The position numbers were made by a program, and so were the translations under genes. The notes under the pieces are model-generated. The model had not been told where the DNA came from. It did not search any database and saw only the letters and a program-made list of their open reading frames with translations. Source: a virus. Taken from it: a stretch of DNA of 49,086 nucleotides. Location of the stretch: positions 1 through 49,086 of the IMG/VR virus record IMGVR_UViG_3300034072_001440; one strand, written 5' to 3'. Positions 1 to 48,736 of this stretch are shown piece by piece. Within the stretch, counting starts at the first letter, position 1, and every line of letters begins with the position of its first letter.

Positions 1-120
1 CCAGCTACTGGAACACCAGCTACTGGAACACCAGCTACTGGAACACCAGCTACTGGAACACCAGCTACTGGAACACCAGCTACTGGAACACCAGCTACTG
101 GAACACCAGCTACTGGAACA
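1..120 (+). repeat. 15-bp tandem repeat, 8 perfect copies, in-frame
   Basis: The unit CCAGCTACTGGAACA is repeated eight times without a mismatch from the first base of the window. It lies in the same reading frame as the gene that follows and encodes the pentapeptide Pro-Ala-Thr-Gly-Thr each time. The array starts at the window edge, so its true length is unknown. Degenerate relatives (TPTETPPTGTG) occur about 120 residues downstream, suggesting expansion of a Pro/Thr/Gly-rich linker. Confidence 0.97.
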
Positions 121-2394
121 CCTTCTCTTACCCAACTGAGATCGGATACGGCGGTTATTGGAGTAAGCAACTTACTGTCCACCAACGACGCCAGTATTCT
201 TCTAAGTAGCCTAAGGAGAAGAGGAACTTCAACCCCCGGGCTAATGCAGGATCCTACGTCACAAAAAATTTATACAAGCGAAGGTGTTCTTGCGCCAGCA
301 GGTACCCTCGTTGCAGTGGGGGATGGAGGGCAAAGATTTATTGTTGGAACGACAGGAACGATAATAAGGGATCTCGCTGGAAACGATGCACCTATTCCTG
401 CTACAGGGTGGGCCGGCACCCCAGGAACAGTAATAACTAATAATCCACCAAAGGATTCCACACCTACTGAGACACCCCCTACTGGAACAGGATGGTGGAA
501 CACACCATTTATTGAAACAGGGGGTATTGTAGTTTCGCCATCAAGTGGCGCTGACATTAGTTATTATAGGCCCCCCGGAACTACACAAGGGAAAATTACA
601 GGAATCTATGTACTTCCAGGACCACTAACTGCGCCCTCAAACATTGATCAAAACGTTTTTGGTAGCCTAAATACGGATGCAGCAAAAAAAGCATATCAAA
701 ACATATCATTTGATCATGAGAATGGGTCTGTTAGGCCCCAAATGGGAGGATTTGGGAGACTTGTTTTTGAGGACTTTTCTCCTTTAAGTATTCTAGGAAC
801 CGGAAATTCCCCAATACCTGACGGAGACGGGTTTTCAAGATTTATAGATGAAAGGTTACAAAGAGATTTTGTAAACTCAGCTGTCCCCAATACTCCGGGA
901 GCAGGACTTTATGCTGCCGGATTTCATGTATACGATCCAAATGTTTTTCAACGAATTGAAGAATGGGGAGAAATTAACCCGCAGGGCGCAAGACAGGTCG
1001 AGGCGTTTTACACAACTTTTGGGATTGATAAAGATAGATTAACGGAGAACGAAAGAAGAAATTATGCTCTTCAAGCGGTAGATTGGTACTTCCGAACTGG
1101 AGGAAATCTACTTCCCACGAGAGAAGGAACTGCCGAGTATTTTCGACAAGAAATAAACGCGGCCTATCGTGAGACAGGGTACGTCCCGCCGCCCAATGGA
1201 ACCGTTATCAACGGAGTTGCCCTCGGGGGAGGGCTTGGCGCAACTAACGGAGCACCCTACACCCAGACTGCCCCACTAGGGGGATTGATTGGGATGGGTT
1301 TCGACCCATTCGATCCAGCGCTTGTTGCAAGACTCAACTTGACGTTGCTGGAAGATGATTTCATCGGCGGAGAGATAAGAAGAAAACTCCAAGGATTTGG
1401 AGACATAAGCACGCCCGAAAGATTGGTCGAAGGAATGAACTGGTACTACGCTGACTTGGGTCGGCGTATGGATATCGATAATTCTTTCTTTAGTTCGGTT
1501 ATTGGGCAGATTATCAAATTTGGAATAACAACCATTGCTTCTACCTTTAACCCCTGGGTAGGAGCTGCAGTAGGGGGAGTCATTGGGGGAATCGAAGGCG
1601 GTCCTCTTGGTCTTGTTAAGGGAGCGATTGGGGGGTATGGAATAGGAAACATAATTGGAATTGATCTGAACAAGGTCATAAATATTCCAATTGTTTCAGA
1701 TCTTGGGCTTCTACCTTCCCCCTCTACGGATTTTGGCTGGGACGCTGTTGTTCGTTTGTTCAAGGATCCAGTTGCCTTGGGCAAAAAAATTGGGGCAGAA
1801 CTTGCTGGAAAGGCGTGGGATAAACTTACTGAAGAAGAGAGAAGGCAGTTCTCTGATTTTGCGATTGCAACAGGAATCCCAATCGTATATCTCAAAAATG
1901 CAATGCAGGGAGGAGCAGATGCTCCTCCTTCGACTAACGTTACAAGAGACCCTAATAGGAACAGGCCGTACTATGCTTCTTTTGAAAGTTACTTTCAAAA
2001 CCCCACTGGACTCCCTCAAAAAGTATCCTGGGGTAGCATTCTAAATTCAGTTAAAGGTTCTTCTCCCGGATCCTTGGATTTTATATCTAAGGCGTTGGAT
2101 GCCGCTGGAATTGGGGCCAAGTCAGGACCTAAAAAATACCTTTTTGCAGACGGCGGCGAGGTCCGTAGTCCATGGGCCACGGACCTTGAACAGTTGACCA
2201 AGGGCTGGGACCAGATGAGCGGCCAGTTTGATGACAAGATGAGCCAAGGGGATAACAATTACTTCATTTCCAAGGCAGATCAGTCGATGGCCCCTGAGGG
2301 AGAAGCCAAAAAGGATTACACTAGCCTGATTGGAGCGACGCCCAACGCAATTGCTGCGAGTGGCATGAACTCCTTTATCAAACAGTATGGATAA
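1..2394 (+). CDS. Large repeat and glycine-zipper protein, 5' truncated, probable virion protein
   Basis: The frame is open from base 1 to the stop at 2392-2394. The ATG at 244 is internal, because the PATGT repeats (1-120) and the bases between are in frame without a stop. At least 797 residues are present and the true N-terminus is missing. A Pro/Thr/Gly-rich stalk is followed by a long domain I do not recognise. A glycine-zipper hydrophobic stretch lies at about 1540-1660 (NPWVGAAVGGVIGG and onward), consistent with membrane insertion. Near the C-terminus the motif FADGGEV recurs in other proteins of this phage. The gene sits directly before portal, where a terminase is often found. It is visibly more AT-rich than portal. 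A virion or ejected protein is my inference from the glycine zipper and shared motif; a fibre-like role is also possible. Confidence 0.85.
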   Translation, partial: PATGTPATGTPATGTPATGTPATGTPATGTPATGTPATGTPSLTQLRSDTAVIGVSNLLSTNDASILLSSLRRRGTSTPGLMQDPTSQKIYTSEGVLAPAGTLVAVGDGGQRFIVGTTGTIIRDLAGNDAPIPATGWAGTPGTVITNNPPKDSTPTETPPTGTGWWNTPFIETGGIVVSPSSGADISYYRPPGTTQGKITGIYVLPGPLTAPSNIDQNVFGSLNTDAAKKAYQNISFDHENGSVRPQMGGFGRLVFEDFSPLSILGTGNSPIPDGDGFSRFIDERLQRDFVNSAVPNTPGAGLYAAGFHVYDPNVFQRIEEWGEINPQGARQVEAFYTTFGIDKDRLTENERRNYALQAVDWYFRTGGNLLPTREGTAEYFRQEINAAYRETGYVPPPNGTVINGVALGGGLGATNGAPYTQTAPLGGLIGMGFDPFDPALVARLNLTLLEDDFIGGEIRRKLQGFGDISTPERLVEGMNWYYADLGRRMDIDNSFFSSVIGQIIKFGITTIASTFNPWVGAAVGGVIGGIEGGPLGLVKGAIGGYGIGNIIGIDLNKVINIPIVSDLGLLPSPSTDFGWDAVVRLFKDPVALGKKIGAELAGKAWDKLTEEERRQFSDFAIATGIPIVYLKNAMQGGADAPPSTNVTRDPNRNRPYYASFESYFQNPTGLPQKVSWGSILNSVKGSSPGSLDFISKALDAAGIGAKSGPKKYLFADGGEVRSPWATDLEQLTKGWDQMSGQFDDKMSQGDNNYFISKADQSMAPEGEAKKDYTSLIGATPNAIAASGMNSFIKQYG

Positions 2395-2399
2395 CCTAG

Positions 2400-4778
2400 A
2401 TGCCTATAGATAAAGCACTGAATCCGGCACCGTCCTTTGGAATGGTTGCCATCACAGACGAGATGCCGGAAATCGAGATCGTTATCGAGCCCGATGGAAG
2501 TGCAACGATTGAAATAGGCGAGGACGAGGGGCCTCAAAAAGGGTTCTACGAGAACCTTGCAGAGGTTATCGACCCCTCTGTCCTGTCCAAGATTGCCTTG
2601 GATCTACTGGATCTGTACGAGGCTGACAAGGCAAGTCGTGGAGACTGGGAGACCCAGTACACCAAGGGCCTTGAGTTGCTGGGCTTGAAGATGGAAGAAC
2701 GCACCAAGCCCTTCCGCGGGGCGTCCGGTGCGGCGCATCCCATGCTGACCGAGGCGATTGTTCAGTTCCAGGCGCAGGCGTTTAAGGAACTGATGCCCTC
2801 TGGTGGTCCTGTAAGGACGCAGATTGTAGGCAAGGAGACCTTGGACAAGGTCCAGCAGGCCGCGCGCGTGCAGGATTTCATGAACTACCAAATCACCACG
2901 GTGATGTCTGAGTACACGCCGGAGATGGATCAGGCGTTGTTCTATCTTGGATACGGTGGATCGGTGTTCAAGAAGGTGTATTTTGACGCCACGCGTGGCC
3001 GCATGGTCAGCAAACTGGTCTTGGCGGACGATTTGTACATTCCGTATAACGGATCAAGCGTGATGAGCGAGTGCCCACGGATCACTCATCGCATTGCAAT
3101 GTACGAAAATGACTTCAAGAAGCTGGCGTGGGCGGGAGAATACATTGATCACACGTTTTTCACGTCACCTGGCCCAGAATCTCCGTCTGAAATTCAGTCC
3201 GGAATTGACCGTTTGGTCGGTTTTTCTCCTACCAGCCGCACTGATGAGCTATTTCTGCTTGAATTTCATGTTGATCTAGACATCGAGGGCTTTGAAGACA
3301 CGGACGAAGATGGAAATCTGACCGAAATCAAGCGCCCGTACGTTGTCACGATTGAGGAAAACAGCGGAAAGATTGTTGGCGTCCGCCGGAATTGGGAAGA
3401 AGGGGACGAATACAAGAGACGGATCGAATATTTCGTTCATTATCCGTTGGTCGAGGGCCCCGGCGCGTATGGCTTGGGCTTCGTGCACCTCATTGGAGGG
3501 CTTTCAAAGGCAGCGACTGCTGCGCTGCGTCAACTTCTTGACGCGGGAACGCTTGCGAACCTTCCCGCGGGCTTCAAAGCCAAGGGCGCGCGGATCGCGG
3601 ACGACGATAATCCGATCCAGCCTGGCGAATGGCGAGACATTGACGCCGGAGGCGCGGAACTTACGGCGTCTCTCATGCCGCTTCCGTACAAGGAACCCAG
3701 TCAGACGCTGTTCCAGCTGCTTGGATTCACGGTGGAGGCCGGACAGCGCCTCGCCAGCATCGCCGACATGCAGGTTGGCGACGGGAATCAGCAGGCTGCG
3801 GTGGGAACAACGCTTGCACTGCTTGAACGCGGGTCGATGGTCATGTCGGCCATCCACAAGCGGCTGCATTATTCGCAAGGCCTTGAGTTCAAGATGCTGG
3901 CAAGGGGCTTTTCCCGCTGCTTGCCGAACTCCTACCCGTATGACGTGCCCGGCGCTAGCCGTACCATCAAGCGGTACGACTTCAACGAGATGGTTGCGGT
4001 CCTGCCTGTATCGGATCCGAACATTTTCTCAAGTGCACAGCGTCTTACGCTTGCACAAATGCAGCTGGAAATGGCGCAAAGCGCGCCGCAGATGCACAAC
4101 CTGTACGAAGCGTATTATCGCGTGTACTCCGCGATGAACGTGCGGGATATTGACGGGATACTGAAGCCGCAAAATACCCAAATGCCCAAGGACCCCGCGT
4201 CAGAAAATGCGGCGGTTATGGATTTGATGGAACTGAAAGCGTTTGCCGGACAACAGCATGATGCCCACATCACTGCTCACCTCATCATGGGCATGTCGCC
4301 TTTGATTCAGAGTGTTCCCCAAGCCGCGATTACGCTGCAAAAACATGTTTTTGACCACATTCGGTTAAAGGCCGAGGAAGATGCTGAGGCAGAACTGTTC
4401 AAGCAGTATGGAAAGGACCCCGGGAACATGGTGTCCGATATTCAGCGCGAAGGTTTGATTGCCACGCTGATTGCGAAGTACATGCAGGAACTGAAGGCGC
4501 TGCAGGAACAGCTTGCCGGCGGTGGTCAAGAAGCGGGGCCGGATCCTGTGGTCGCGCTCAAGGAAAAGGAACTTGAACTTCGCGCGCAGCAGGATCAAGC
4601 GAAGCTACAGCTGGAGCAGGCGAAGCTGCAACAGGCGGCGCAGATACAGCAGCAGCGTATTCAGTCGCAGGAAAAGATTGCCCAAGACCGGGTAGAGGTG
4701 GCCCGCGAGCGGGCCGTCATGATGAACGAACAAATCCAGGGAGCACAGCGCAATGCCGCTCAAGAAAGGCCGCAGTAA
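2400..4778 (+). CDS. Portal protein
   Basis: This 792-residue protein has the size and look of podovirus (P22/T7-type) portals. It would form the dodecameric ring at the capsid vertex through which DNA is packaged and ejected. Recognisable stretches include the N-terminal region with KPFRGASGAAHPML and a central FYLGYGGSVFKKVYFD block typical of phage portals. The C-terminal roughly 100 residues are a Gln/Glu/Arg-rich coiled coil, like the barrel/crown helix of large portals. The start is 5 bases after the previous stop, with no clear ribosome binding site, so translational coupling is likely. A second Met at residue 15 is possible. The last 26 bases overlap the next gene. Followed within 4 kb by scaffold and capsid genes, which supports the call. 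Confidence 0.9.
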   Translation: MPIDKALNPAPSFGMVAITDEMPEIEIVIEPDGSATIEIGEDEGPQKGFYENLAEVIDPSVLSKIALDLLDLYEADKASRGDWETQYTKGLELLGLKMEERTKPFRGASGAAHPMLTEAIVQFQAQAFKELMPSGGPVRTQIVGKETLDKVQQAARVQDFMNYQITTVMSEYTPEMDQALFYLGYGGSVFKKVYFDATRGRMVSKLVLADDLYIPYNGSSVMSECPRITHRIAMYENDFKKLAWAGEYIDHTFFTSPGPESPSEIQSGIDRLVGFSPTSRTDELFLLEFHVDLDIEGFEDTDEDGNLTEIKRPYVVTIEENSGKIVGVRRNWEEGDEYKRRIEYFVHYPLVEGPGAYGLGFVHLIGGLSKAATAALRQLLDAGTLANLPAGFKAKGARIADDDNPIQPGEWRDIDAGGAELTASLMPLPYKEPSQTLFQLLGFTVEAGQRLASIADMQVGDGNQQAAVGTTLALLERGSMVMSAIHKRLHYSQGLEFKMLARGFSRCLPNSYPYDVPGASRTIKRYDFNEMVAVLPVSDPNIFSSAQRLTLAQMQLEMAQSAPQMHNLYEAYYRVYSAMNVRDIDGILKPQNTQMPKDPASENAAVMDLMELKAFAGQQHDAHITAHLIMGMSPLIQSVPQAAITLQKHVFDHIRLKAEEDAEAELFKQYGKDPGNMVSDIQREGLIATLIAKYMQELKALQEQLAGGGQEAGPDPVVALKEKELELRAQQDQAKLQLEQAKLQQAAQIQQQRIQSQEKIAQDRVEVARERAVMMNEQIQGAQRNAAQERPQ

Positions 4779-5271: not shown

Positions 5272-5286
5272 ACCCTGGGAGGAGTG

Positions 5287-5754
5287 ATGATAGAAGCCGC
5301 ACGTGAAAAAACCGCACTTGAGAAAAAATGGGAAGAAGCGCAACAGTCTCGCGCCCCTGCCTTTGAAGATGCCTACGATGCTGATGGTAAATTTCGCCCA
5401 GAGAACATGGGCGAAACCTTAAAAGACCTTGTCCCCACGCCGACTGGTTGGAGGATTGCCATTCTTCCTTACCGCGGCCCGGAAAAAACCAAGGGTGGCA
5501 TTGTTTTGGCGGACGAAACCCAGCGCCGCACCCAGCTCGCGACCACGTGTGGATACGTCCTCAAGGTCGGAGATCTTGCATACAGAGATGAGTCCAAATT
5601 TCCCACCGGCCCTTGGTGCAAGGAGGGAGATTGGATCATTTTTGGCCGCTATGCCGGCTCTCGAATCATGATTGATGGCGGAGAAATCCGCATCCTTAAT
5701 GACGATGAGATTATCGGCGTGGTCAACGATCCAGAAGATATTCTACACATGTGA
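5287..5754 (+). CDS. GroES-like co-chaperonin
   Basis: This 155-residue protein contains a GroES-type beta-barrel from about residue 50. A mobile-loop sequence KTKGGIVLADE lies at 68-78, matching the GGIVL segment with which GroES grips GroEL, and the end (GGEIRILNDDEIIGVV) matches the GroES C-terminal strand. The N-terminal roughly 48 residues are a charged extension not found in bacterial GroES. By analogy with T4 gp31 it would replace host GroES and fold phage capsid protein with host GroEL. It stands just before scaffold and capsid genes, consistent with that job. The ATG at 5287 is preferred, with GGGAGG just upstream; GTG at 5284 is the alternative. Confidence 0.88.
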   Translation: MIEAAREKTALEKKWEEAQQSRAPAFEDAYDADGKFRPENMGETLKDLVPTPTGWRIAILPYRGPEKTKGGIVLADETQRRTQLATTCGYVLKVGDLAYRDESKFPTGPWCKEGDWIIFGRYAGSRIMIDGGEIRILNDDEIIGVVNDPEDILHM

Positions 5755-44437: not shown

Positions 44438-44929
44438 ATGCCTGGACCTCGACGTGTACGTCGCTTCCAAGTCGGAGGAAGCGCGAATGTAGATTCTGGC
44501 GAACGCCGCCAGCCTAACATGAAACTTGTCGAGTCCTTCATGGCTCGACAAGGGATGTCAGAGGAACAGAAGGCGAATTACCGCCGGATGCTGGGCATAG
44601 ATCAGCCAAAGCCCCCTGCCAAGCCCGCCGCAAAAAATCCTCGTTCACCGCTCGCGCAGGCGGTAAGACCCAAGAAAAAGAAGCCCATTGTCCGCAGGGC
44701 CGCTCCTCCGCAACAGGCCGCACCGGCCACTCGCCAAGCCGCTCCTCCGCCCCCTCCGCCCCCTCCGCCTCCAGCGCCTATGCAGGCCCCGGAGCAGGAC
44801 GGAATGCTGGGCGAAACCATGAATGCAATCCAACAGCGTCAGCAGATGCTGCAGGGCCTGAAGCGTGGCGGCCCGGTCAAAAAGAAAGCCGCTCCACGGC
44901 GCGTGGTCCGCGCCAAACGACGCCGATAA
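44438..44929 (+). CDS. Pro/Ala-rich basic protein with GG motifs (copy 1 of a pair)
   Basis: This 163-residue protein starts PGPRRVRRFQVGGSAN, has a short helical domain (LVESFMARQGMSEEQKANY), a Pro/Ala-rich middle with ten Pro in a row, and ends GLKRGGPVKKKAAPRR plus an Arg/Lys tail. Both the opening QVGG and the closing GLKRGGxVKKK recur in the next gene. It is probably disordered and nucleic-acid-binding or virion-internal. Reading frames on the opposite strand are mirrors of the repeats. Confidence 0.68.
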   Translation: MPGPRRVRRFQVGGSANVDSGERRQPNMKLVESFMARQGMSEEQKANYRRMLGIDQPKPPAKPAAKNPRSPLAQAVRPKKKKPIVRRAAPPQQAAPATRQAAPPPPPPPPPPAPMQAPEQDGMLGETMNAIQQRQQMLQGLKRGGPVKKKAAPRRVVRAKRRR

Positions 44930-44947
44930 ATTCCAAAAGGATTTCCA

Positions 44948-45805
44948 ATGAAGCCGACCAAGAAGCCGATGATGGCGAAGCGCACCACCAAAGCCGCTCC
45001 CGCCAAGAAGAAGATGATGGCTAGTGCCAAGAAGCCGATGACGGCTAATGGCAAGAAGGTTCAGAAGTATCAGGTGGGTGGCATGGCCGCTCCAGGCAAA
45101 GGCAGGGTGACTAACCCCGGCGGTCCGTCGGCCACGATGCCTCCGTCCAATCCGCGCGTCGTGCGTCCGAGGATGCCGCAGACTGGCGGTGTTAATCCGC
45201 GTCCGGCAGCGCCGGGTGTTGGCTACGGTGGGATTGGACGACCCGGTGTTCAGGGACGCCCGGGACAGGGGATGATCGCCAACAATGGCGGCGGGATGAT
45301 GTCTCCTCCGTCTCGGCCAAACATTCCGGGGATTACCCCTCCAATGAATCGCCCTGTTCGCACTCCGCCGCAGCCGCAGGGAATGCCGCAGGGGATGAAC
45401 CCAGCAATGCAGCTGTATGCTCAACAGTATGGGCAGATGCCGCAGCCGCAGGGGATGCCGCAGGGTGGTTTGCTGGGCGCAGGACCGATGCAGCAGTTGG
45501 GACAGGGGATGCCGCAGGGTGGTTTGCTGGGCGCAGGACCGATGCAGCAGTTGGGACAGGGGATGCAGGGAATGGACCCAAGAATGCATCCGGATTATCA
45601 GTCGCCGAAGACCATCGACTTGCGGGATCCTGCGATGGCTGCTCGGTATGGGCATCTGGGTCGTGGGCCGCAGCCGTTGACGCAGGAGCAGTTGCAGCAG
45701 CTAGGGCCGATGAGACAGCTGGGCCTCAAGCGAGGCGGTGAAGTCAAGAAGAAAAAAGCCCCGGCGCAGGGTCGCATGGCCAAGCCTGCGCGAAGGAAGA
45801 AGTAA
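44948..45805 (+). CDS. Lys/Pro/Gly/Met-rich protein with 54-bp repeats (copy 2 of the pair)
   Basis: The 285-residue product opens with Lys/Met-rich sequence (MKPTKKPMMAKRTTKAAPAK), carries KVQKYQVGGMAAPGKG, then a Gly/Pro/Met/Gln-rich middle with two identical copies of an 18-residue unit (GMPQGGLLGAGPMQQLGQ). It ends in GLKRGGEVKKKKAP. The shared beginning and end with the preceding gene suggest a common origin. It looks intrinsically disordered. Function unknown; internal virion protein or DNA-condensing factor possible. Confidence 0.68.
   Translation: MKPTKKPMMAKRTTKAAPAKKKMMASAKKPMTANGKKVQKYQVGGMAAPGKGRVTNPGGPSATMPPSNPRVVRPRMPQTGGVNPRPAAPGVGYGGIGRPGVQGRPGQGMIANNGGGMMSPPSRPNIPGITPPMNRPVRTPPQPQGMPQGMNPAMQLYAQQYGQMPQPQGMPQGGLLGAGPMQQLGQGMPQGGLLGAGPMQQLGQGMQGMDPRMHPDYQSPKTIDLRDPAMAARYGHLGRGPQPLTQEQLQQLGPMRQLGLKRGGEVKKKKAPAQGRMAKPARRKK
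45451..45562 (+). repeat. 54-bp perfect tandem repeat
   Basis: GGGGATGCCGCAGGGTGG starts at 45451 and 45505 and the next GGGGATG at 45559, so two complete 54-base units precede a partial third. The unit is 18 codons in frame; no mismatch is visible between the two full copies. Confidence 0.93.
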
Positions 45806-46135: not shown

Positions 46136-46492
46136 ATGACTGTCGAGACCCTCGGCCAGAAGCAGCGCCGTTTCACGATTTACGTGGCACGGCTCATCGA
46201 GTGGGCGTACCAAAACGGGTACGAACTGACCGTCGGCGACGCCTACCGTTCGCCGGAGATGGCGAAGATCTACGCCGCGCAGGGCAAAGGCAGCGAGTAT
46301 AGCTTGCACTGCGAACGTCTGGCCGTTGACCTCAACCTGTTCATCGACGGCAAGTACCAGCCGAACAGTGAGGCCTACGAACCCCTCGGAAAATTCTGGA
46401 AATCCATCCACCCCGATTGTCGCTGGGGTGGAGACTTCCGGCGTATCAAGGACGGCAACCACTTCTCTCTCGCCCACGGGAACATGGCATGA
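46136..46492 (+). CDS. Endolysin, M15-family L-alanyl-D-glutamate-type peptidase
   Basis: The 118-residue protein has the M15 (VanY-like) zinc peptidase motifs: GDAYRSPEMAK (33-43 region), SLHCERLAVDLNLF with zinc ligands H58 and D65, and DGNHF with H109. It would cut a peptide bond in peptidoglycan at the end of infection. No signal peptide is visible, so the holin coded next, overlapping by 4 bases, would release it. In related enzymes the segment after the last His is often HFE; here it is HFS. Confidence 0.88.
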   Translation: MTVETLGQKQRRFTIYVARLIEWAYQNGYELTVGDAYRSPEMAKIYAAQGKGSEYSLHCERLAVDLNLFIDGKYQPNSEAYEPLGKFWKSIHPDCRWGGDFRRIKDGNHFSLAHGNMA

Positions 46493-46905
46493 TCGCAGAC
46501 GCAATCGCGGGTGTTGTCGGCAAAATCATTGACCGCGCTTGGCCTGACCCTGCACAGAAAGCCGCCGCGCTTCTCGAGCTGGAGAAGATGAAGCAGGCCG
46601 GCGAGTTCAAACAGATGGACGCCGACCTGCAGGCCATGCAGATGCAGGCCGACGTCAACAAAGTTGAAGCCGGAAGCGCAGACCCGTTTACCAGCCGCTG
46701 GCGACCTTTCGTCGGCTGGGTATGTGGGACCGCATTGGCCTGGCACTACATCGGCAGGCCGCTCGCCGGCTGGGTGTTGCTGCTAACGGGAAATGCCACG
46801 CCGATTCCGGCGGTGGATTTGGGGGACCTCATTGTGATTTTGCTGGGCCTTCTCGGGCTCGGAGGCCTCCGCTCGTATGACAAGCTTCATGGTACGTCCC
46901 GATAA
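46489..46905 (+). CDS. Holin, 3TM family
   Basis: The 138-residue protein has an N-terminal helical part with charged residues, the signature DPFTSRWRPFVGWVCG, and three hydrophobic segments (about 73-88, 90-102 and 112-127). This is the pattern of the GTA-type 3TM holins. It forms membrane lesions that let the endolysin reach the wall. The start at ATG 46489 overlaps the endolysin stop (ATGA). Its end overlaps the next gene by 29 bases. Confidence 0.86.
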   Translation: MIADAIAGVVGKIIDRAWPDPAQKAAALLELEKMKQAGEFKQMDADLQAMQMQADVNKVEAGSADPFTSRWRPFVGWVCGTALAWHYIGRPLAGWVLLLTGNATPIPAVDLGDLIVILLGLLGLGGLRSYDKLHGTSR

Positions 46906-47551: not shown

Positions 47552-48736
47552 ATGAAAAAGGCCCCCCCACAGCAGAAAAACTCAGTTAACGAGTTCATTC
47601 GTTCCGCACTTGGGAGCACGAAGCGTGAACCCGGCTGGGAGTACGGAAACATTCTTCCTGTCCGCATGCGAAAGAACGAGCAGGGCGAGAAGGAAAGGGA
47701 GTGGGGCCTTGGCTATAGCAACACCGCGAAGGGCATGCTTGATGCGTTTACCCTCCCCCGCCGTGCGATGGAAGGAGAGGAGGTAACGCCGGAACAGGCC
47801 ATGGAAATGGCCATGAACGTCAGCGCTCCGGGCGTGGCCACGGCGCGCTATGCCCCCGGCGTCCTCAACATGCCGATAGTTTATCATGGGGGCCCACACA
47901 AATTTCCGCCTACCCCGGACAATCCGCTCGGAGAATTTGACGCTTCCAAAATCGGAAGTGGGGCAGGCGGGCAATCGTACTCGCATGGAGTTTATGTGGC
48001 TCAAAATCCTAAAGTATCTCAGTTTTATAAAGATACGGCAGGAATTGGCTCTCAAGATATGCCCGCTCCAGATGACTCAATTGCAGCGGATCTTGGAAGT
48101 TTAAATTTTCTCCCTGATGACATTGACGAATACTACGACTTAGTGAAGTCTAGCGCAGAAAAAATATATTTTAAAAATGGGAAAATAACTTACGAATTTA
48201 ATGATGGATCGTTTGGGGCTTTTGACGACGATGGACAATTTAAAGCGTTTGCAAAACCCGAAAGTTTCCTCTACACCGCCGACCTTCCCGACGAAATGGT
48301 AGATCGAATGCTGGACTGGGATAAGCCGCTGAGTGAGCAGCCGGAAGCGATAAGAAAAGCATTAGCCAATATCCAACCAAGCTCTGTTGTCGACGGAACA
48401 GAAGTGGTTGGCGGCGGAGTGATTAGAATAAAAAATGACCCTGATTTTGGGCCAAAGTATTTTCTTGAGATGGACGGAGAATCCTTTCGTTTATCACCAG
48501 AAGATGTAGACAGGTTGGCAGGGGAAAATCGCGGAGAATCTTTTTATCGCTCATTGATGGAAAAATTTGGTGGCGGAAAACCCGGAGAAATAAAGGCTAG
48601 CGAGTATCTTCGAGCCTTAGGAATCCCCGGCATCAAATACCTAGACGAGTTCAGTAGGGGCGCGGGGGAAGGAACCCGCAATTTCGTTCTCTTCCCCGGT
48701 GAGGAAAAGAAGGCAAAAATCATAAAAAGGGAGTAA
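47552..48736 (+). CDS. ADP-ribosyltransferase-like protein with phage N-terminal region
   Basis: The ATG at 47552 gives 394 residues. An N-terminal part (about 55-95, KGMLDAFTLPRRAMEGE) resembles regions near the start of phage polyvalent or ejected proteins. From residue about 109 it has VYHGGPHKF (H112), FDASKIGSGAGGQSYSHGVY (Y148) and, at the end, LGIPGIKYLDEFSR and EGTRNFVLF. These are hallmarks of phage ADP-ribosyltransferase-like domains of the H-Y-E kind. A modifier of host proteins is inferred. The region about 48000-48560 is distinctly AT-rich, unlike its flanks, suggesting a separately acquired domain. Confidence 0.72.
   Translation: MKKAPPQQKNSVNEFIRSALGSTKREPGWEYGNILPVRMRKNEQGEKEREWGLGYSNTAKGMLDAFTLPRRAMEGEEVTPEQAMEMAMNVSAPGVATARYAPGVLNMPIVYHGGPHKFPPTPDNPLGEFDASKIGSGAGGQSYSHGVYVAQNPKVSQFYKDTAGIGSQDMPAPDDSIAADLGSLNFLPDDIDEYYDLVKSSAEKIYFKNGKITYEFNDGSFGAFDDDGQFKAFAKPESFLYTADLPDEMVDRMLDWDKPLSEQPEAIRKALANIQPSSVVDGTEVVGGGVIRIKNDPDFGPKYFLEMDGESFRLSPEDVDRLAGENRGESFYRSLMEKFGGGKPGEIKASEYLRALGIPGIKYLDEFSRGAGEGTRNFVLFPGEEKKAKIIKRE

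What the first reader, a model, noticed from the sequence alone, without database searches (positions are those of the whole stretch)
47552..48736. ADP-ribosyltransferase-like protein with an AT-rich core near the lysis genes
The YHGG, GVYVA and EGTRNFV blocks fit phage ADP-ribosyltransferase-like domains, and the N-terminal region resembles ejected polyvalent proteins. The AT-rich stretch about 48000-48560 suggests a recently exchanged effector core. It may be a host-takeover or anti-defence enzyme delivered with the DNA.
Basis: partly seen in the sequence, partly recalled or inferred. Interest (0 to 1): 0.65.

Follow-up and report, generated by a model that had tools for sequence, protein, structure and literature searches.

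The report
Phage ADP-ribosyltransferase with swappable cores
A phage gene near the lysis genes encodes a predicted ADP-ribosyltransferase of the virion-linked 'ART-PolyVal' kind, and comparing relatives shows a conserved catalytic frame in which two AT-rich blocks are exchanged independently between phages, as expected if the enzyme is repeatedly re-targeted against host proteins.

Summary
ORF 47552-48736 (394 aa) has the three motifs: H112 in strand 1, Y148 in strand 2, and D365 with N377 near the C-terminus. It belongs to a large phage family around Pfam ART-PolyVal (30 of 59 relatives match; this protein itself does not). A model of a close relative is ART-like but matches solved ART structures only weakly. 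The AT-rich 'core' is real but is two blocks: 47987-48256 and 48344-48610, split by a GC-rich conserved island.

Relatives show real exchange. L005 is a recombinant with L004-type ends and the window's core. In 54 pairs with similar N-terminal regions, the frame is about 88-92% identical but the two cassettes only about 20%. Even phages with terminases at least 95% identical mostly carry unrelated cassettes. Nineteen pairs share one cassette and not the other.

Related genes lie within 5 kb of the terminase in 57 of 77 loci, often next to the portal, which fits virion delivery. In L006-L008 the same leader carries an AcrIF11-like (anti-CRISPR ART) domain instead.

Best reading: a probably virion-delivered host-takeover or anti-defence ART whose target-recognition cassettes are shuffled. 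Activity, delivery and targets are untested.

The parts
47552..48736 (+). ART-PolyVal-type protein, 394 aa
47552..47875 (+). N-terminal leader (aa 1-108), conserved 88% mean column identity in 5 relatives; shared with proteins carrying other C-terminal domains (L006-8 AcrIF11-like; weakly L013)
47882..48001 (+). frame block 1 (aa 111-150): strand 1 with H112 (YHGG) to strand 2 with Y148 (GVYVA)
48002..48265 (+). cassette V1 (aa 151-238), AT-rich from about 47987 to 48256, found in no other held locus except the near-identical L001; mostly absent from L005
48266..48343 (+). frame block 2 (aa 239-264, FLYTADLPDEMVDRMLDWDKPLSEQ), GC-rich island, L254-D257 and P259 invariant
48344..48619 (+). cassette V2 (aa 265-356), AT-rich, shared at 93% only with L005
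48620..48736 (+). frame block 3 (aa 357-394): strand with invariant D365 (GIPGIKYLD) and TRNFVLFPGEEKKAKIIKRE
46136..46492 (+). neighbour: endolysin
   Evidence: phrog_1768, 3.8e-13
46417..46905 (+). neighbour: holin
   Evidence: phrog_3427, 8.2e-35
2400..4778 (+). portal protein; in L004 and L005 the ART gene lies directly upstream of this gene

Best explanation
The gene encodes a mono-domain NAD+-dependent ADP-ribosyltransferase of the ART-PolyVal (H-Y-D) kind. A conserved N-terminal leader probably takes it into the virion so that it enters the cell with the DNA. Its conserved beta-frame carries the catalytic residues H112, Y148 and D365. Two AT-rich blocks inserted in the frame (V1 between strands 2 and 3, V2 just before the catalytic-D strand; both helical in the model of relative L004) probably contact the host target. 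Homologous recombination between the GC-rich conserved blocks swaps V1, V2 or the whole core between phages, re-targeting the enzyme quickly against changing host factors or defences. Shown here: family membership by sequence, the conserved residues, the exchange, its two-cassette pattern, and the packaging-gene context of relatives. Supported but weakly: the ART fold against solved structures. Inferred: enzyme activity, virion delivery, and that cassettes set target choice.
For: H112/Y148/D365 conservation matches the H-Y-D site described for polyvalent-protein ARTs (PMC5512222). Pfam ART-PolyVal hits 30 of 59 members, best 1.6e-8. The BFVD fold match to ART-PolyVal proteins is E 3.9e-17. The model of the L004 domain (pLDDT 85.8) finds RES, cholix, exotoxin A and diphtheria-type ART chains at PDB ranks 2-14. 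Exchange: L005 is a mosaic of L004-like ends and window-like core. For 54 pairs with N>=70% identity, medians are b1 92, V1 22, B2 88, V2 20, C 88%. TerL>=95% pairs have unrelated V1 and unrelated V2 each in 93%. Single-cassette swaps such as L058/L085, where V1 falls to 36-53% DNA identity in a 4.6 kb stretch otherwise about 87%. 7 of 9 multi-member V1 clusters occur with more than one V2. Cassette GC3 is 0.417 against 0.658 in neighbouring genes, lower in 55 of 55 loci. Context: TerL within 5 kb in 57 of 77 loci, TerL-ART-portal in several. 29 loci found in 84,980 bacterial/archaeal genomes, against at least 585 stretches in viral contigs. In AcrIF11 the variable helical region before the catalytic D is proposed to set target specificity (PMC12421852), which is the topological place of V2.
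Against: The protein itself scores no Pfam, NCBIfam or PADLOC family. PDB fold matches to ARTs are weak (E 0.17-1.2, TM about 0.2-0.5), and the full-length model gave none. The window copy is not beside packaging genes. Seven relatives have Q instead of H112, so not all members may be active in the same way. No data link the cassettes to target choice; they could vary for other reasons.
Confidence: 0.6

Rival explanations
1. It is an ART made inside the cell late in infection (lysis-time effector) and not packaged; its place behind the lysis genes reflects real late intracellular use.
For: Window, L002 and L006-8 carry it after endolysin, holin, HNH endonuclease and a DUF3310-like gene.
Against: The same leader and frame sit directly upstream of the portal in L004/L005 and near TerL in most relatives; late transcription also fits packaging.
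Confidence: 0.2
2. The protein is an inactive or structural relic of an ART used as a virion or head component; the core varies because it is under little constraint.
For: 7 of 59 relatives have Q at the H112 position; L005 lacks most of V1; no cut-off-level Pfam match for the window protein.
Against: Y148 and D365 are invariant in 59 of 59 and frame blocks stay at 85-97% while cassettes are replaced. Whole-cassette swaps with sharp edges are not the pattern of drift. The cassettes of L004 are mostly predicted with good confidence.
Confidence: 0.12
3. It is an anti-CRISPR of the AcrIF11 type or acts on CRISPR surveillance complexes.
For: At the same locus with the same leader, L006-8 carry an AcrIF11 homologue (6KYF E 1.5e-11), so the slot can hold an anti-CRISPR ART.
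Against: The window ART shows no sequence match to AcrIF11; the very diverse cassettes suggest many targets.
Confidence: 0.08

Closest known systems
ART-PolyVal, PF18760 (Tox-ART-HYD2 clade; Iyer et al. 2017, PMC5512222)
   Same: H in strand 1, Y in strand 2, D in a late strand; phage origin; packaging-gene neighbourhood in relatives
   Different: Here a solo enzymatic domain with a leader, not a large multidomain polyvalent protein; two exchangeable cassettes inside the domain, not described in the papers I searched; below Pfam cut-off
AcrIF11 (anti-CRISPR ART, PDB 6KYF and 8DWQ; PMC12421852)
   Same: ART with a conserved catalytic D/E loop, and a poorly conserved helical region before it proposed to choose the target; an AcrIF11 homologue replaces this domain on the same leader in L006-8
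   Different: No detectable sequence similarity of the window protein to AcrIF11; different size and inserts; target unknown
Bacteriophage T4 Alt
   Same: Phage ART that acts on host proteins; Alt is packaged and injected with the DNA (per PMC5512222)
   Different: Alt has an R-S-E active site; this family has H-Y-D
Polymorphic toxin C-terminal cassettes and type I restriction HsdS target-recognition domains (own knowledge)
   Same: Conserved frame with recombinationally exchanged specificity parts
   Different: Here two cassettes lie inside one catalytic ART domain of a phage protein, and their role in specificity is unproven

Membership tests
ART-PolyVal / Tox-ART-HYD2 | H in strand 1, Y in strand 2, D in strand 5 | tested here: met
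   H112 in E109-114, Y148 in E147-150, D365 right after E360-364; conserved 52/59, 59/59, 59/59; criterion from PMC5512222
ART-PolyVal / Tox-ART-HYD2 | Pfam PF18760 match above the gathering score | tested here: not met
   No match for this protein; the relatives scored are below cut-off (phiGT1 30.0 vs 31.2); 30 of 59 match at E<=0.01
ART-PolyVal / Tox-ART-HYD2 | ART fold | tested here: inconclusive
   BFVD ART-PolyVal E 3.9e-17 and ART chains at PDB ranks 2-14 but E>0.1
ART-PolyVal / Tox-ART-HYD2 | NAD+ binding and ADP-ribose transfer | not testable with these tools
   needs a bench assay
Polyvalent proteins | two or more effector domains in one polypeptide | tested here: not met
   one ART domain plus a leader of about 108 aa, no second family found
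Polyvalent proteins | packaged in the virion and injected | not testable with these tools
   only genomic context
AcrIF11 | sequence homology to AcrIF11 | tested here: not met
   window protein: no AcrIF11 hit in PDB; the L006 C-terminal domain does match, E 1.5e-11
T4 Alt (R-S-E ARTs) | R-S-E active site | tested here: not met
   the conserved residues are H-Y-D

The most novel reading that the evidence does not exclude
A widespread phage ART family works as a reprogrammable injected modifier: one catalytic frame with two independently exchangeable target-recognition cassettes, shuffled between phages by recombination at conserved blocks. The same delivery leader can also be re-armed with a different ART, including an AcrIF11-type anti-CRISPR, which would then be delivered before CRISPR interference starts.
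Probability: 0.4. Interest if true: 0.8.

Novelty: new variant of a known kind. Interest (0 to 1): 0.6.

Why it matters
ART domains are described as the commonest protein-modifying domains of polyvalent phage effectors (PMC5512222), yet I found no known target for this family. The cassette pattern says where to look for specificity and offers natural single-cassette pairs (for example L058/L085) as ready tests. The AcrIF11 homologue on the same leader suggests that phages may deliver anti-CRISPR enzymes with their DNA, which would bear on how an infecting phage survives before it can express an Acr.

Tried and rejected
Direct Pfam, NCBIfam and PADLOC scans of the window protein gave nothing useful; PHROG only a weak hit. 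Plasmid search: no match. PDB sequence searches with the protein and with profiles A3, A5 and A6 gave only chance matches. The full-length model (pLDDT 70) gave no ART in the PDB, so a trimmed close relative was folded instead. The top PDB hit of that model, a cyanophage A4 pre-ejectosome chain (E 0.047, rmsd 13), is too weak to use, had no sequence support, and no paper on that structure was found in the library. A single AT-rich core was rejected: it is two blocks. V1 and V2 of the window have no relatives in the phage records, so they gave no clue to the target. Literature searches for this cassette pattern found no description, but most subscription papers and preprints are not held.

Full report
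What is there. The ORF at 47552-48736 (+) encodes 394 aa. The record is a 49,086-base virus contig with one copy of the gene; its genes include portal, major head protein, endolysin and holin. The named motifs are present. In an alignment of 59 sequences Y148 and D365 are invariant, H112 is kept in 52 (Q in 7) and N377 in 57; D255, W256, D257 and P259 in the middle block are also invariant.

Family. The window protein alone has no curated family match. Its relatives match PF18760 ART-PolyVal: phiGT1 gp5 at 1e-6, and 30 of 59 aligned members with best 1.6e-8. Iyer et al. 2017 (PMC5512222) describe the polyvalent-protein ARTs as H in strand 1, Y in strand 2 and D in strand 5; the window model puts H112, Y148 and D365 in or beside such strands. 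The window model's best viral-library matches are ART-PolyVal-like proteins (E 3.9e-17). A better model (pLDDT 85.8, pTM 0.79) of the ART domain of the close relative L004 matched a RES toxin, cholix, exotoxin A and diphtheria toxin chains at PDB ranks 2-14, but all at E above 0.1. I take the family as well supported and the fold match to solved structures as weak.

AT-rich core. GC is 0.584 in the N block, about 0.37 in V1, 0.575 in the middle island, 0.434 in V2 and 0.520 in the C block; the genome is 0.535. Similar low-GC stretches occur elsewhere in the window, so composition alone is not proof. Across relatives the same pattern recurs: frame GC3 exceeds cassette GC3 in 63 of 64 genes, and cassette GC3 is below that of neighbouring genes in 55 of 55 loci (0.417 vs 0.658).

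Exchange. Close relatives show the process. L005 matches L004 at 96-100% DNA identity up to about 47806, then matches the window at 89-100% to about 48650 apart from a missing V1, then matches L004 again. L002 and L004 share V1 at 94-100% but not V2. In the wider family, 54 pairs with similar N-terminal regions have medians of 92/88/88% for the three frame blocks but 22% and 20% for V1 and V2. Fourteen pairs with TerL at least 95% identical (two further pairs with identical ARTs left out) have unrelated V1 and unrelated V2 each in 93% of pairs, while frame blocks stay at 92-97%. Nineteen pairs share one cassette and not the other. In L058/L085 V1 drops to 36-53% in a 4.6 kb stretch otherwise about 87% identical. 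There are 47 V1 and 45 V2 types among 63-64 genes, in 59 combinations with N-terminal types. Sampling caveat: relatives were found through patterns in the B2 and C blocks and ranked by similarity to the window protein, which favours conserved frames; N and the cassettes were not selected that way.

Position and context. In L004 and L005 the gene lies directly upstream of the portal gene; in L003 before the endolysin region; in the window, L002 and L006-8 behind a DUF3310-like gene. In the wider family TerL lies within 5 kb in 57 of 77 loci and the order TerL-ART-portal occurs several times. Only 29 loci were found in 84,980 bacterial and archaeal genomes. This fits the published argument that ARTs encoded beside packaging genes are packaged (PMC9503650), but packaging was not tested.

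A second effector on the same leader. L006-8 share residues 10-141 at 91%, then carry a different C-terminal domain that matches AcrIF11 (6KYF, E 1.5e-11; 8DWQ, 0.0019), keeping the D-E pair of the catalytic loop. The same domain, 92% identical, occurs on an unrelated leader in L123-126, with TerL detected downstream in L125 and L126. So leaders and ART domains are exchanged as well as cassettes.

Mechanism. In AcrIF11 the helical region before the catalytic D is poorly conserved and proposed to set the target (PMC12421852). V2 lies in the matching place and V1 is a second, helical insert after strand 2 in the L004 model. The simplest account is a fixed catalytic frame with changeable target recognition. 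That the cassettes choose the target is inference.

Verdict. The enzyme kind is known; the independent exchange of two intradomain cassettes across the family was not described in the papers I could search.

Noticed in passing
L006:5959-6918 (also L007, L008): The chimera keeps the first strand and glycine-rich loop of the ART (to GTGEGAQ) before the AcrIF11-like domain, so a piece of the old domain remains.
   Followed up: partly
L026, L028, L030, L037, L043, L069, L077: Seven ART relatives have Q in place of the catalytic H (YQGSPHKF); five of them (L026, L028, L030, L037, L077) also have H just before the strand-2 Y.
   Followed up: partly
L013:1371-2759: A leader-like motif (PRRAGQGEEITPQEA) precedes a different, unidentified C-terminal region upstream of TerL.
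   Followed up: no
window 44438-45805: Two adjacent lysine-rich, low-complexity proteins both end in a similar LKRGG-VKKK motif; possibly internal virion or DNA-binding proteins.
   Followed up: no
window 1-130: The contig opens inside an ORF with PATGT tandem repeats; no match to the L004 TerL was found in the window.
   Followed up: partly
window 5284-5754: A GroES-like co-chaperonin gene lies between portal and major head protein.
   Followed up: no
L003:10703-11199 and L006:10227-10475: Small genes made of glycine/tyrosine/aspartate repeats (GYGDGYGDGY).
   Followed up: no
PDB 9k3a_B against the L004 ART model: Weak top fold match (E 0.047) to a cyanophage A4 pre-ejectosome chain; would be interesting if that chain holds an ART domain.
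   Followed up: partly
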